A stretch of DNA of 64,000 nt from a virus, in the IMG/VR virus record IMGVR_UViG_3300034683_000092, positions 32,584 to 96,583 of that record; one strand, written 5' to 3'. The position numbers and the translations under genes are program-made. Below the pieces are notes generated by a model that saw only the letters and a list, made by a program, of their open reading frames with translations, had not been told where the DNA came from and did not search any database. Below, piece after piece: positions 1,427 to 64,000 of this stretch; the first letter of the stretch is position 1; each line of letters starts with the position of its first letter.

Positions 1427-1530
1427 GGAGAAGTGGCGGAATTGGTATACAGCAGTAGATTGACGGAAGCACCCTAAAGTCGTCGTAAATAATTAGCTTG
1501 GGTTTGCAGGTTCGACTCCTGCCTTCTCCC
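1427..1530 (+). tRNA. tRNA-like sequence with leucine-type arms and an abnormal anticodon region
   Basis: The acceptor stem pairs over 7 bp (GGAGAAG 1427-1433 with CTTCTCC 1523-1529), and the T arm is canonical (GCAGG TTCGACT CCTGC, 1506-1522). The D arm GGCGGAATTGGTATACAGC resembles tRNA-Leu. The D stem pairs 3 of 4 positions. The span is about 104 nt, and I cannot place a 5-bp anticodon stem with a 7-base loop in the roughly 50 nt between the D and T arms. It may be a class II tRNA with an insertion, a decayed tRNA, or a tRNA mimic. I therefore assign no anticodon. Confidence 0.45.
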
Positions 1531-11776: not shown

Positions 11777-12734
11777 TGGCGGTGGTAAAACGACGAGTCA
11801 CATGATTAATGTAGATGGGACAGTGGATTTAAATCCAGAAAAATACACTGGAATGAATCCTAAAACTCATTTTATAATAAACACAGACTGCAAGCAATTG
11901 CCTTTGCCACCACACCTGTGGAATAGAAAGAACAAGAATTATACAGAAACCAAAGAATTGGAAGATATTAGAAAAGTCTTTCAGTATGTAGCCAAGAACC
12001 CAGATATAAAATCTATTTCATTAGATACTTTAAATGTTTATTTAGCATATAAAGAGTATAATGATAGAAAAAAGCTTACATTTGATCAGTAAACTAAAGT
12101 TTTAACATTTTTAATAAATTTGTAAACGCTGCTGATCTAAAACTCCGTTAAACAGGGAAACTCTTGTAATATAGACAATCCTGTGCTAAACCTTTTAGAA
12201 ATAAAAGAAAATGCCAAACGACTAGGAATGATGCTTAACAAGTAATGTTGAAGCTATAAAATTTCCCACGAAAGCGGGGCACTGCTTATTTTTTTTTTAA
12301 TAAGCTAAAGATATAGTCTGAGCTATATGGTGACATATAGAAGCACGAGATAAAGAGCTTGTGCGATAACAAATGGGCGTGATGTAGCCAATGATATTCT
12401 TGAAATAATCGACATGTGCAATAACGTGTTAAGAGAAGATCAAATTGGATATATATTTTGTCACACGAACATACAAACTGATGTTGATGGTGCTGATAAA
12501 AGAGTTATTGCTGTTTTAGGTAAAAAGTCGGTTTCCAGACCTCCAGAAGCATTCTTTCCAATTGTTTTAATGACAACTGTTGAAGATGACGGAGATGGAG
12601 AACCTCGCTTTTTCTTTGAAACAAAAATGAATCGTAGTACTGCAAAAACTCCACTTGGGATGTTTAATGAATTTAGAATTCCAAATTCATTAGCTTTAGT
12701 AGATAAAGCCATTAGAGATTATCATAAGATCTAA
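11745..12734 (+). CDS. RecA/Sak4-like ATPase (AAA_24 type), interrupted by a group I intron
   Basis: Exons 11745-12090 and 12376-12734 join to 705 bases (234 aa). Exon 1 has Walker A GPSGGGKT (residues 9-16) and a Walker B-like SISLDTL; exon 2 has IGYIFCHTNIQT and the end of the core fold. Joining T12090 to GG at 12376-12377 creates TGG (Trp), giving FDQ-W-RDVANDI in one continuous frame, which fits this family (usually near 230 aa). Without splicing, translation stops at TAA 12090-12092. Sak4-type proteins act in single-strand annealing recombination and replication. The placement between helicase and SSB fits. Confidence 0.85.
12091..12375 (+). ncRNA. Group I self-splicing intron, 285 nt, no endonuclease gene
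   Basis: The 5' exon end GATCAGT (12084-12090) pairs over 7 bp with the internal guide GCTGATC (12131-12137), with the hallmark U-G pair at the splice site. The preceding guide bases ACGCT (12126-12130) pair with the first 3' exon bases GGCGT (12376-12380), forming P10. The intron ends in G (12375). The core shows GTGCTAAACC (P4-P6 region), ACGACTAGG, and AGATATAGTCTGAGC, typical of P7. No ORF is long enough for a homing endonuclease, so mobility would have to depend on another enzyme. Splicing is probably needed to make a functional ATPase. Confidence 0.93.
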
Positions 12735-59886: not shown

Positions 59887-60567
59887 TTATTGTTTTTTAT
59901 TTAAATCGTCTGATGCATTATTAACCTCGTCGCTGTTTAACCTGGAACTTCTTAAAAGCCTTTCTACAATGACTTCTATTAGAGTTGATTGTAACGAGTC
60001 TTCTAATGGAAATTCAATGTCTAGCATGTCAAATCCATTCTTATCTTCATTAAAGAAGAAAACCTCTCGTGGGTTATCAAATACAGCAGTTAGATTTACT
60101 GATTTTAAATACTGTATTGCATTTCCATTAGATTTTGCTATAAGCTTATTATTTTTATCTAAAGAGAAATAGATCATTTTGTTTAGAAATTGATTGTTTC
60201 CAACAAATCTAATTCTTTCGTATGGAACAAAAGACATGTGTATTCCATTTAAGTCATTACCAACTGAGCTAATAGATACGCTTGAGTCTAAAGCTCCAAT
60301 GCTTACCATTTGAGGAATATAAGAAGTGCTTATAAGCTCATTTGTAGACAGTCCTAAATCATCGTTTTTCTGCTCAAATGAGACTTTGACTGTTTGAGTA
60401 TTAGAACTAGGTATCCGTTTTCTTACATCTGAATACTTTTGTTTTAATAACATAGATCTATATTTATCGATTAAATAAGATATATGTGCATCGTTATATA
60501 GCGAATCGTCAGATGTCGCTCTTATTTGGTCTAGTATTATATATACTAATTCTCTGTATGTACTCAT
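59887..60567 (-). CDS. Connector / ring protein candidate downstream of the IscB insertion, 226 aa
   Basis: I take the ATG at 60567 (MSTYRELVYIILDQIRATSD); an in-frame TTG at 60582 would add five residues encoded by the iscB element end. The start has the helix-rich form (LYNDAHISYLIDKYRSMLLK) found in crAss-like connector proteins, followed by a beta-rich region. The stop codon of iscB overlaps this ATG (ATGA), so the element ends directly at this gene's start. Expression of this and all downstream late genes may now depend on transcription through iscB. Confidence 0.65.
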   Translation of the reverse strand: MSTYRELVYIILDQIRATSDDSLYNDAHISYLIDKYRSMLLKQKYSDVRKRIPSSNTQTVKVSFEQKNDDLGLSTNELISTSYIPQMVSIGALDSSVSISSVGNDLNGIHMSFVPYERIRFVGNNQFLNKMIYFSLDKNNKLIAKSNGNAIQYLKSVNLTAVFDNPREVFFFNEDKNGFDMLDIEFPLEDSLQSTLIEVIVERLLRSSRLNSDEVNNASDDLNKKQ

Positions 60568-61850
60568 ATTAAATTTCGGCAAGGAAACCCATGTATTGAT
60601 GCATGGGAGGAATTGCCACTATTCCTTCTTTCTATTAATAATGTTCTTCTTATTTCTACTAACCGTAATGTCTTGCAGTTGACACTGCCTTTGTCGACTT
60701 TGGTTCCGTTCAACCTGCGAATATCGAAATAACCACTCTTTCTTCTTCCGAACACATAAAACAGTTCTTTCTGATATTCCACTAAGTCAAACAGTCTAAA
60801 TCCTTTTACCGTGAAAGGAGCCTGATTGAGCTTCTTCTTGCCGCCTTTCAGAATATTAGCCTTATGTAACTGTCTGTTCTGACATCTTACTTTCCTTTGA
60901 TAGAAGTAATATCCAAGAGGCTTAGCTTGCGGGTTTCCGCTTATACAGCGAGCATCAACATAGTGCTCCTTTGGGAGCCCATTAACAATACGGGTATTCT
61001 TAGTGATATATCCGAATGTCATAGATACATTGGAATATATTTGCTTCAGTCTTTCAAGAAAAGCCCATCGCATAACGCCCATAAATGAGGCGTCTCGGAA
61101 TGAAGCCCCACGTTTCACCTTTAGCTCAAACTTACCAGAATGATAAGCCTTGTGACAGGTCTCGCACAACGTGATAAGGTTGCTTGGGCTATTGCCTCCA
61201 GTCTTTCTCGACTCAAGGTGGTGTACATTGAGAATCTTATTTCCGCTCTTCCCATGACAATGCTGGCATGTATGCCTGTCACGCCAAAGAACGTATTCAC
61301 GGATATTCCAAAATCCCATCTGCTCTCCATTCTGATAATCTTCGCCATCAACATTTGGATTCTTTATCTTCTGAATGTCAAAAGATGCAGTTTCGACGAC
61401 AATTTTTGATATAGGAAGTATTTTGTAAGCGTCCATCACAACCGTCAAGTGAGTCTGTATTTTGTTCTCGATAGACGGAGCCATCCATCCTTTATGCTTT
61501 GACGATACCCGATTATTAAATCGAGCCTTACGATAACGAAGCCTGCTTCTACGTGTTCTTCTCTGTTCTCTACGTGTAGAGATCTTATCCACAATGTCGT
61601 TCCTAAGCTCAACGTTTGCAGCATACAAATCTTTTTTATCTGTCGTAGCGCATACGCCTATGAATTTACTTCCTGCGTCTATTCCCAACGTTATTGGCTG
61701 CGTGATTTCAGTTGTATCATAGTCCAATTGAATTGTAAACGGAATATGTCGCACGACATGAGCAAGACCACTTTTCAACAGTCGTCTTACTTTTCCATGT
61801 CTATCTGTAGGCATCAATGCCTTCCCCTGTCTGTTTGTTACGTAAACCAT
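60564..61850 (-). CDS. iscB: IscB: RNA-guided HNH/RuvC DNA nuclease
   Basis: 428 aa, in the usual IscB order: PLMP domain (VTNRQGKALMPTDRHGKVRR), RuvC-I LGIDAGSKFIGV (D58), arginine-rich bridge helix (RREQRRTRRSRLRYRKAR, 93-110), RuvC-II IVVETASFD (E153), HNH with CQHC (195-198), HHLESRKTGG (H210, H211), N224 and CETC (229-232), and RuvC-III HYVDARCI (H296, D299). All catalytic residues are intact. The protein uses an omega RNA guide to nick or cut DNA and is the ancestor of Cas9. Its last codons run through the element's right end, and the TGA stop overlaps the ATG of the phage gene at 60567. The homing role is inferred from related elements. Confidence 0.93.
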   Translation of the reverse strand: MVYVTNRQGKALMPTDRHGKVRRLLKSGLAHVVRHIPFTIQLDYDTTEITQPITLGIDAGSKFIGVCATTDKKDLYAANVELRNDIVDKISTRREQRRTRRSRLRYRKARFNNRVSSKHKGWMAPSIENKIQTHLTVVMDAYKILPISKIVVETASFDIQKIKNPNVDGEDYQNGEQMGFWNIREYVLWRDRHTCQHCHGKSGNKILNVHHLESRKTGGNSPSNLITLCETCHKAYHSGKFELKVKRGASFRDASFMGVMRWAFLERLKQIYSNVSMTFGYITKNTRIVNGLPKEHYVDARCISGNPQAKPLGYYFYQRKVRCQNRQLHKANILKGGKKKLNQAPFTVKGFRLFDLVEYQKELFYVFGRRKSGYFDIRRLNGTKVDKGSVNCKTLRLVEIRRTLLIERRNSGNSSHASIHGFPCRNLI

Positions 61851-62100
61851 TATTGTTAATTTAAAATACTGTAAGTCGGATTTCTCCGTTAAATGCTCAT
61901 CGCCAATGTTATAGGGAGGTTTTGTGTGCCAGCAACACTGTTCCTACCTCACAGAACTGTTTAATCACTGACCGCAGAGCAAGGAACTTGAACAAACATT
62001 CCTTTGTGCCTATATATTCTACCCTAACGTAGCACCGAGGTGCTTAGGCTAATCAGTCAAGGCTTCTACAAGCCTGCCCCTTCAGGGGTGGGTAACTGAC
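60571..62100 (-). mobile_element. IscB element (IS200/IS605-type ends, no transposase) inserted in the late operon
   Basis: The DNA is richer in GC than the flanks. The right end has a subterminal hairpin at 60578-60617 (GGCAA...CCCATG/CATGGG...TTGCC in plus orientation). The left end has CCCC TTCA GGGG (62077-62088) and the sequence GGGTAACTGAC up to 62100, after which AT-rich phage DNA resumes. It carries iscB and omega RNA but no TnpA in the window, so it would need a transposase in trans. Exact ends are estimates to within about 10 bases. Confidence 0.75.
61851..62100 (-). ncRNA. omega RNA (HEARO-type) for IscB
   Basis: Directly upstream of iscB on the same strand. It carries the compact hairpins of this RNA class: CCCC/GGGG with a 4-base loop (62077-62088), AGGCTT/AAGCCT (62060-62065 with 62070-62075) and GCAC/GTGC with a 4-base loop (62032-62043), the last enclosed by CCTAA and TTAGG. 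The 5' end meets phage DNA at 62100. By the known IscB layout, the guide would be the roughly 16 bases just outside (62101-62116). The 3' boundary near the iscB start is not resolved. Confidence 0.85.
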
Positions 62101-62111
62101 ATTTATTATTA

Positions 62112-62127
62112 TAATTTTGCAAAATTA
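62112..62127 (-). promoter_or_regulatory. Perfect palindrome containing a Bacteroides -7 motif next to the omega RNA
   Basis: TAATTTTGCAAAATTA (16 bases) reads the same on both strands and contains TAATTTTG, which fits the Bacteroidota sigma-ABfr -7 element TAnnTTTG. On the minus strand, transcription would start about 7-10 bases further, close to the 5' end of the omega RNA. No clear -33 TTG at the right distance could be fixed. It may be a promoter, an operator, or both. Confidence 0.4.
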
Positions 62128-62155: not shown

Positions 62156-62228
62156 TACAAAAAAAAATCACACTATATGATAAGATTTAAAACGCTATTT
62201 AACGCTAAATTTACTATATAGTGTGATT
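62156..62228 (-). terminator. Intrinsic terminator of the RT / HExxH operon
   Basis: AAATCACACTATAT (62164-62177) and ATATAGTGTGATTT (62215-62228) form a perfect 14-bp stem with a 37-base loop. On the minus strand the stem is followed by a T9 run (A9 on plus, 62158-62166, partly within the stem), and the element starts 5 bases after the stop of the gene at 62233. The loop holds two copies of AACGCTA-like sequence. It would stop transcription of the right-hand genes before IscB. Confidence 0.8.
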
Positions 62229-62232
62229 TATA

Positions 62233-62547
62233 TTATACCGTTTTCTTTTTAATAAAATAATTTTTATAAGAAAACTTAATTCTTTCATTCAGGTAATTGT
62301 CATTTGACTGATTCAAATATGCCTCACGTTCAAAAGGATTATCCTTGTATCCGTACAGAGCATAATAATAGATATATATTATATAAAACAATACATAATA
62401 TAATTCTTTCATTTGTGCCGTATGAATTAATTCGTGATTTATTATTTTCTTTGATATTTTAACTCCTTTTCTAGCAAATAAAACACCAAATAAGTTTATT
62501 GCAGAGAATCCTTTGAATGGAATAATGTTATTATATACTATCTTCAT
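62233..62547 (-). CDS. HExxH zinc metalloprotease-like protein, 104 aa
   Basis: HELIH at residues 38-42 in INHELIHTAQM is a zincin motif, with a downstream acidic FEREAY that could supply the third metal ligand. A hydrophobic Tyr-rich stretch (LFYIIYIYYYALYGY) follows the motif and may contact the membrane. Short proteins of this form are frequent in Bacteroidota genomes and their phages. Activity is not proven. Ends before the terminator at 62156-62228. Confidence 0.65.
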   Translation of the reverse strand: MKIVYNNIIPFKGFSAINLFGVLFARKGVKISKKIINHELIHTAQMKELYYVLFYIIYIYYYALYGYKDNPFEREAYLNQSNDNYLNERIKFSYKNYFIKKKTV

Positions 62548-63074: not shown

Positions 63075-64000
63075 TTAAATTGTTCCCTCAAAATAATAAC
63101 CTCTATCCTGGAGTATAACCACATCTGTAAGAGGTAACTCAGATCGATCTACTTTTTCCAAGACGTTAATCAAATATTGATAGCTACCACAGAGGAATAA
63201 TTTTTCACCTCTGTATAGTATCTGCATATCTACACGCATTCGATCATTCTTGATAGATGGTAATATGCGATAATCAAGAATCTCAATTTTTTCGCCTACA
63301 ACTTTATCAATCTTGACCTTACGGCCGTCAAATGGCCGCTCTATTTTTATCCCTAAATTAGCTAAACTACCCATGTGATTATTATCATTTGTAATTGTTT
63401 TATCAATTAAATTACGGCTGTTACAATGCTTCATAATGCCCATATAGCTAGCCATTGAGGTTGGACTATGACGTTTCTTTATCATAGACTTTTTAATACT
63501 TTTCCTCACTTTTGTGTAGCCTGGAAAAAACACATAACCTCCCATATCAATGCCATCTTTAACACGACCTATTCTTCGGTTTTCCTTTAGTTCTAGTTTC
63601 AGATTGTACCATAAAAAGTTTCCAATGCCCCACATTATACGATGTAAGTCCTGTTTTGAATCTGATAATATTAGCATATCATCGGCATATCTAAAGTAAT
63701 GTTTAACTCTTAATTCTTGCTTAATATATCTATCAAGCGAACGAAGTATAACATGACTAAGCAACTGAGAGTCTGGACTACCGATTAACAATCCCTTATG
63801 ACTATAATTCATTTCGTCAAGTAACCAAAGCAACTCTTTATCCTTGCAATCACGCCTGTAACATAATGCCAATACATCATTATCAACTGATTCATAGAAC
63901 TTTTTAATATCTAATTTCAAATAATAAACCGACTCTGGTAATAAGATAGCTCTTTTTATCTTTTTGTTCATATTGTATACTTTGTTTCGGCTTGTAATGC
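63075..64000 (-). CDS. Reverse transcriptase, DGR-type, 5' end outside window
   Basis: The frame stays open to the right edge, so the N-terminus is missing; an internal ATG is at 63971. Counting from that ATG: motif A YYLKLDIKKFYESVD (D21), a DGR-style IGSPDSQLL (63-71) where group II intron RTs have QGGxxSP, and motif C FRYADDML (YADD 95-98). The late segment SPTSMASYMGIMKHCNSRNL is also characteristic of RTs from Bacteroidota diversity-generating retroelements. No template repeat is visible in the window. Confidence 0.85.
   Translation of the reverse strand, partial: ITSRNKVYNMNKKIKRAILLPESVYYLKLDIKKFYESVDNDVLALCYRRDCKDKELLWLLDEMNYSHKGLLIGSPDSQLLSHVILRSLDRYIKQELRVKHYFRYADDMLILSDSKQDLHRIMWGIGNFLWYNLKLELKENRRIGRVKDGIDMGGYVFFPGYTKVRKSIKKSMIKKRHSPTSMASYMGIMKHCNSRNLIDKTITNDNNHMGSLANLGIKIERPFDGRKVKIDKVVGEKIEILDYRILPSIKNDRMRVDMQILYRGEKLFLCGSYQYLINVLEKVDRSELPLTDVVILQDRGYYFEGTI

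What the first reader, a model, noticed from the sequence alone, without database searches (positions are those of the whole stretch)
60564..62100. Intact IscB RNA-guided nuclease with omega RNA inside a crAss-like phage late operon
IscB is the Cas9 ancestor. Here all RuvC and HNH residues (D58, E153, H210/H211, N224, H296, D299), the PLMP domain and the arginine-rich bridge are kept, and a hairpin-rich HEARO-type RNA sits directly upstream on the same strand. The element interrupts a phage structural operon between an upstream operon ending in a terminator and a connector gene. A phage carrying a working RNA-guided nuclease could use it to home into related phages or exclude rivals. I do not know of a described case in crAss-like phages.
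Basis: partly seen in the sequence, partly recalled or inferred. Interest (0 to 1): 0.9.

Follow-up and report, generated by a model that had tools for sequence, protein, structure and literature searches.

The report
IscB homing-type element in crAss-like phage
A crAss-like gut phage carries a complete mobile element encoding IscB, the small RNA-guided DNA cutter related to the ancestor of Cas9, together with its guide RNA, wedged exactly between the promoter and the start codon of a tail gene; the system is a known type, but this appears to be its first sighting in this phage group.

Summary
Window 60568-62100 (minus strand, 1533 bp) is a complete IscB/HEARO element: omega RNA at 61888-62100 (RF02033, 132.6 bits), intact 428-aa IscB at 60564-61850 (NCBIfam guided_IscB, 352.6 bits against a cut-off of 175), and a right-end hairpin. 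The record is a crAss-like phage (muzzle, ring 1, ring 2 and cargo proteins).

The element lies between the Bacteroidetes-type promoter (TAATTTTG) of the ring-2 gene and its start codon. Joining the flanks puts that promoter 27 nt before ring-2 ATG; 40 of 63 related crAss loci have the same motif 15-50 nt upstream (controls 0-1). None of those loci carries IscB. Relatives of the element also stop at ATG[AG] (48/57 loci; controls 2-9), and true empty sites in Sutterellaceae show that this ATGA belongs to the target.

Most likely it is a mobile RNA-guided homing or retention element: its guide is copied from the ring-2 leader, so it would cut element-free relatives beside ATGA but not its own genome. 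Activity is inferred, not shown.

IscB is common in phages (111 IMG/VR matches here; PMC9755519), so this is a new member of a known kind. The Crassvirales location and promoter-leader insertion are the new points.

The parts
62156..62229 (-). Intrinsic terminator closing the upstream transcription unit (A/T-rich stem and U9)
   Evidence: strand folding MFE -25.7 kcal/mol, z -6.24, 0 of 200 shuffles as good
62120..62127 (-). Bacteroidetes -7 promoter element TAATTTTG, the native ring-2 promoter now driving the element
   Evidence: matches TAnnTTTG (PMC7366714); same motif 15-50 nt upstream of ring-2 ATG in 40/63 crAss loci, controls 0-1/63; close to the portal promoter of the same genome
62101..62116 (-). 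Predicted 16-nt guide AATTATAATAATAAAT, derived from the ring-2 5' leader
   Evidence: sequence directly 5' of omega RNA stem P1; unique in the 96.6-kb record and followed by GTCA instead of ATGA
61888..62100 (-). HEARO / omega RNA scaffold
   Evidence: RF02033 132.6 bits, positions 1-211 of 211
60564..61850 (-). IscB (PLMP, RuvC I-III, arginine-rich bridge, HNH, C-terminal domain); stop codon overlaps the ring-2 start
60568..60624 (-). Right end of the element with hairpin CCCATG-CATCAATA-CATGGG
   Evidence: nhmmer with right-end model built from relatives 29.4 bits; hairpin 60607-60588
60568..62100 (-). Whole IscB/HEARO element, 1533 bp
   Evidence: boundaries by homology to multicopy elements and empty sites
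60564..60567 (-). Predicted TAM ATGA = ring-2 start codon plus one base
   Evidence: [AG]TG[AG] follows the right end in 48/57 non-training loci, controls 2-9/57; target-derived in Sutterellaceae empty sites
59887..60567 (-). crAss ring protein 2, the tail gene displaced from its promoter
   Evidence: Pfam CrAss_Ring_2, E 3.4e-36

Best explanation
This is a complete, probably active IscB-omegaRNA mobile element that invaded a crAss-like phage at the start of the ring-2 tail gene and is kept by RNA-guided homing or retention. Shown: element boundaries (by homology), intact nuclease, omega RNA, insertion between the ring-2 promoter and its ATGA start (by reconstruction), and absence from other crAss phages searched. 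Inferred: the phage's TAnnTTTG promoter transcribes omega RNA, iscB and ring-2 together. Because that promoter lies about 20 nt from the omega RNA scaffold, the transcript should begin with a guide of about 14-16 nt copied from the ring-2 leader, which is the length IscB uses. The loaded nuclease then cuts a co-infecting or sibling genome without the element at guide plus ATGA. Repair from the element-bearing copy spreads the element or restores it after excision. Its own copy is safe because the guide there is followed by GTCA. Ring-2 expression is kept by the shared transcript and the ATGA stop/start overlap.
For: IscB equivalog, conserved catalytic residues, IscB fold, omega RNA. Boundaries: 12 Sutterellaceae copies begin GTC[AG]A and are followed by ATG[AG], nearly all at gene starts; 14 empty lepA-lepB junctions in relatives show the ATGA is target sequence. 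Right-end/ATG[AG] association 48/57 against 2-9/57. Joined flanks give the promoter at -27 and then ATGAGTACATACAGAGAA; relatives have the same motif (40/63) and near-identical starts (ATGAGTACATACAGAGAA in L044; ATGAGCACATACAGACAA in L251). No IscB in 63 crAss ring-2 loci, no HEARO in 26 crAss records. Strong amino-acid constraint: pN 0.14, pS 0.80 against the nearest relative. Guide optimum 14-16 nt (PMC13180657). A TnpB gene drive is shown in plasmids (PMC11870625). crAss001 carries endonuclease genes in the same operon, one beside ring 2.
Against: No strain of this phage without the element was found, so no direct empty allele or homing event is seen. No expression or cleavage data. The TAM is inferred from insertion sites, not measured. 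The guide is low-complexity A/T, so specificity may be poor. The transcription start, and so the guide length, is predicted from the motif only. Ring-2 relatives are too distant for the guide to match, so homing partners must be close kin that are not in the collections.
Confidence: 0.6

Rival explanations
1. It is an ISC/IS200-IS605-type transposon copy mobilised by a transposase supplied in trans by the host. IscB only prevents loss at the donor site after excision; there is no horizontal homing between phages.
For: Family boundaries, insertion immediately 5' of ATG[AG] without target duplication, and multicopy chromosomal relatives in Sutterella and Duodenibacillus are what a TnpA-type element would leave.
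Against: No Y1 transposase in the phage record (controls rang). PMC9755519 reports that only a few HEARO nucleases sit with TnpA. The two mechanisms overlap and sequence alone cannot separate them.
Confidence: 0.25
2. The phage has taken IscB over as a weapon: the RNP attacks competing crAss phages (superinfection or co-infection exclusion) rather than promoting its own spread.
For: Placed under a tail-operon promoter; the guide targets a site expected in close relatives, and any cut of a rival harms it; the gene is under amino-acid constraint.
Against: The guide comes from the insertion site itself, as in any selfish copy; it does not match the ring-2 leaders of the sampled crAss phages; expression with tail genes would be late for exclusion; no sign of fixation in the lineage.
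Confidence: 0.1
3. It is a recently arrived but inert passenger, with nuclease or omega RNA no longer working.
For: No functional data; the C-terminus reads through the right-end hairpin, adding about 16 residues to the aligned part of its relatives.
Against: All catalytic positions kept, no stops or frameshifts, full-length omega RNA at 132.6 bits, pN far below pS.
Confidence: 0.05

Closest known systems
OgeuIscB-omegaRNA (PDB 7xht, 8csz, 7utn) and the IscB/OMEGA family
   Same: PLMP, RuvC, bridge, HNH and C-terminal parts; upstream omega RNA with the guide at its 5' end; TAM 3' of the target
   Different: 428 aa against 496; about 27% identity in the structure match; here in a crAss-like phage; TAM predicted ATGR, not measured
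HEARO elements (RF02033) and MG35-1 (429 aa, PMC9755519)
   Same: Same RNA family, same protein size class, viral occurrence already reported
   Different: No Crassvirales example found in the papers searched; here the omega RNA sits behind an identifiable phage promoter
TnpB of IS200/IS605 as plasmid gene drive (PMC11870625)
   Same: Guide records the insertion site and cuts element-free copies, giving drive
   Different: Cas12-type nuclease, element includes or uses TnpA, guide at the 3' end of the RNA
Free-standing homing endonucleases of crAss phages (crAss001 gp37 and gp41)
   Same: Selfish endonuclease genes in the same tail operon, gp41 beside the ring-2 gene
   Different: Annotated as group I intron type endonucleases, which recognise DNA by protein and are not RNA-guided
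IscBs of two IMG/VR phage contigs (L002, L003)
   Same: 77-78% identical IscB, one clade with SH-aLRT 100
   Different: No crAss marker found on them; other insertion sites

Membership tests
IscB RNA-guided endonuclease | Above-cut-off match to NF040563 with PLMP, RuvC and HNH | tested here: met
   352.6 bits against 175; RRXRR and HNH Pfam
IscB RNA-guided endonuclease | RuvC (D58, E153, H296/D299) and HNH (H210/H211, N224) residues | tested here: met
   invariant in 40 sequences; aligned to the OgeuIscB sequence in PDB hits
IscB RNA-guided endonuclease | Upstream omega RNA of the HEARO family on the same strand | tested here: met
IscB RNA-guided endonuclease | Guide- and TAM-dependent DNA cleavage | not testable with these tools
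   needs biochemistry
HEARO mobile element | Fixed ends, insertion immediately 5' of ATG[AG], no target duplication | tested here: met
   family-level; for this copy the ends are by homology and the empty site by promoter/start reconstruction
IS200/IS605 transposon | Y1 transposase in the element or genome | tested here: not met
   no PF01797 match in the record
Crassvirales | crAss muzzle, ring and cargo proteins, MCP, synteny with crAss001 | tested here: met
   (MCP 63% to cr108_1, 59% to crAss001)
Homing endonuclease element | Super-Mendelian transfer to the element-free allele in mixed infection | not testable with these tools
   no strain pair available; no strain-level empty allele in the collections
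Homing endonuclease element | Patchy distribution with unoccupied sites in relatives | tested here: met
   0/63 crAss ring-2 loci carry it; 0/26 crAss records have HEARO

The most novel reading that the evidence does not exclude
The phage's own tail-operon promoter sets the 5' end, and so the length, of the guide: by inserting exactly between promoter and start codon, an IscB element gets a ready-made 14-16-nt guide against its own target and drives itself through crAss phage populations as an RNA-guided homing element, while the ATGA stop/start overlap spares the structural gene.
Probability: 0.35. Interest if true: 0.65.

Novelty: new member of a known kind. Interest (0 to 1): 0.45.

Why it matters
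IscB is related to the ancestor of Cas9, and why so many copies live in phages is open. This copy has a defined promoter, guide, target and neighbouring structural gene in one of the most abundant gut phage groups, so RNA-guided homing between phages becomes a concrete test: one predicted target, one predicted protected sequence. It also illustrates a general rule of this subfamily: elements stop at gene starts because ATGR serves both as start codon and as predicted TAM.

Tried and rejected
A DNA-level empty allele of this phage: the search for related loci with ring 2 and MUZ gave no close kin; the only near-identical record (L013, MCP 100%) has no ring-2 match. A second guide target in the phage itself: no 12-nt match other than the guide's own copy; the best ATGR-flanked site has 2 mismatches in 13 nt. 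A 1-mismatch site in some crAss relatives is about what chance gives for an A/T-rich guide, so rejected as a target. TnpA in the record: none. crAss markers in the IscB-bearing viral records (about 80): none (positive controls rang in 54). sigma-70 scan: no more hits than shuffles, as expected for Bacteroidetes-type promoters. Enrichment of the bare TAnnTTTG motif upstream of all genes of this record was weak (9 against 5.3 expected); the case rests on the ring-2-specific comparison. Circularity or end overlap of the record: none.

Full report
WHAT IS THERE. The window is bases 32584-96583 of a 96,583-base IMG/VR virus record. On the minus strand, 60564-61850 is a 428-aa ORF that matches the NCBI equivalog 'RNA-guided endonuclease IscB' at 352.6 bits (cut-off 175), Pfam RRXRR and HNH, OgeuIscB and other IscB structures by sequence and by fold (8csz, E 1e-29). 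The model is moderate (mean pLDDT 73), so the fold match supports, and does not carry, the assignment. Directly upstream, 61888-62100, lies a full-length HEARO/omega RNA (RF02033, 132.6 bits, cut-off 83).

THE PHAGE. Downstream genes are crAss ring protein 2, ring protein 1, muzzle and cargo protein 1. Order and homology follow crAss001 from the capsid region to the muzzle. The nearest GenBank capsid is 63% identical (cr108_1) and the nearest muzzle about 34%, so the phage is a distant, poorly sampled Crassvirales lineage.

ENDS OF THE ELEMENT. Twelve related elements in Sutterellaceae chromosomes start abruptly with GTC[AG]A and end immediately before ATGA or ATGG, nearly always at a gene start. 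For the Duodenibacillus copy, 14 loci in relatives have the uninterrupted junction, with the same start codon in place (ATGA in most, GTGA in a few); I read the two flanking genes as lepA and lepB from their sequence. The ATGA is therefore target sequence and the element adds no duplication. A right-end model trained without the ATG finds [AG]TG[AG] within 3 nt in 48 of 57 loci outside the training set; the same test at eight other offsets gives 2-9 of 57. This copy's right end fits the model (29.4 bits). The element is thus 60568-62100, and the IscB stop codon TGA is formed by the ring-2 start ATGA.

THE TARGET SITE. Left of the element lies TTTTATTAATTTTGCAAAATTATAATAATAAAT, with the Bacteroidetes -7 motif TAnnTTTG (motif from PMC7366714) and close likeness to the portal promoter of the same record. 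Across 63 crAss ring-2 loci, 40 have TAnnTTTG 15-50 nt before the ring-2 ATG and none has IscB; at control offsets the motif count is 0-1 of 63. Joining this phage's flanks puts the motif at -27, in that range, followed by ATGAGTACATACAGAGAA. That start is identical in L044 and near-identical in L251 and L252. An upstream terminator (z -6.2) suggests that the promoter opens a new transcription unit. The element therefore separates the ring-2 promoter from its start codon. This is a reconstruction, because no strain-level empty allele was found.

DISTRIBUTION. 26 crAss records have no HEARO; the 63 ring-2 loci have no IscB; the 24 phage records in GenBank with IscB include no recognised crAss-like phage. 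Conversely none of the roughly 80 IscB-bearing IMG/VR records tested has the crAss muzzle, with positive controls ringing. IscB itself is common: 111 viral and 304 genome matches confirmed in single scans. The nearest IscBs, 77-78% identical, lie on two phage contigs without crAss markers and form a clade with this one (SH-aLRT 100). Amino-acid sites are far more conserved than silent ones (pN 0.14, pS 0.80).

HOW IT LIKELY WORKS. IscB guides are the sequence just 5' of the omega RNA scaffold, with an optimum near 14-16 nt (PMC13180657). Here that is AATTATAATAATAAAT, unique in the record and followed by GTCA, so the phage should not cut itself. In an element-free relative the same sequence would be followed by ATGA and would be cut. 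Repair from the occupied copy would spread the element, as demonstrated for TnpB in plasmids (PMC11870625). If the promoter starts transcription a few bases after TAATTTTG, the transcript begins with a guide of about the right length; this step is inference. No Y1 transposase is present, so spread must rely on homing or on a transposase in trans.

NOVELTY. HEARO nucleases in viral contigs were reported (over 16%; PMC9755519). The literature search, limited to open-access papers, found none in crAss-like phages. Protein homing endonucleases do occur there, one of them beside the ring-2 gene of crAss001. I therefore file it as a new member of a known kind, with an unusually clear insertion site.

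Noticed in passing
L060:3145-3409 (Parabacteroides phage PF672P2, OP172820): A HEARO RNA about 80% identical in DNA to the window's, without an IscB gene, ending just before the ATGA start of a small gene: an orphan omega RNA that could be served by IscB in trans.
   Followed up: partly
family-wide, e.g. L113, L122, L124, L131, L132: HEARO elements of this subfamily sit between the ribosome-binding region and the start codon of genes, because ATGR is both start codon and predicted TAM; guides are therefore leader sequences.
   Followed up: yes
window 63075-63998 (-) and L010:2-1765 (-): A reverse transcriptase cut by the record end and a 588-aa tail-type protein cut by the record start; possibly a diversity-generating retroelement straddling the gap, but no template/variable repeat pair was found in the record.
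   Followed up: partly
L010:18031-19998 (-): Terminase large-subunit region with two apparent inteins (two C-terminal HN junctions); weak Hom_end_hint match.
   Followed up: no
window 12102-12340 (+): Group I intron (RF00028, 66 bits) after a DnaB-like helicase gene.
   Followed up: no
window 1427-1530 (+): tRNA-like sequence of 104 nt (Rfam 32 bits) that ARAGORN rejects; a tRNA with an odd insertion or a decaying one.
   Followed up: no
window 62233-62547 (-): 104-aa protein with an HELIH motif (phrog_15610, 'protease') next to the element.
   Followed up: no
L309 and G022: crAss-like records whose ring-2 and muzzle genes hold in-frame TAG codons, suggesting TAG recoding.
   Followed up: no
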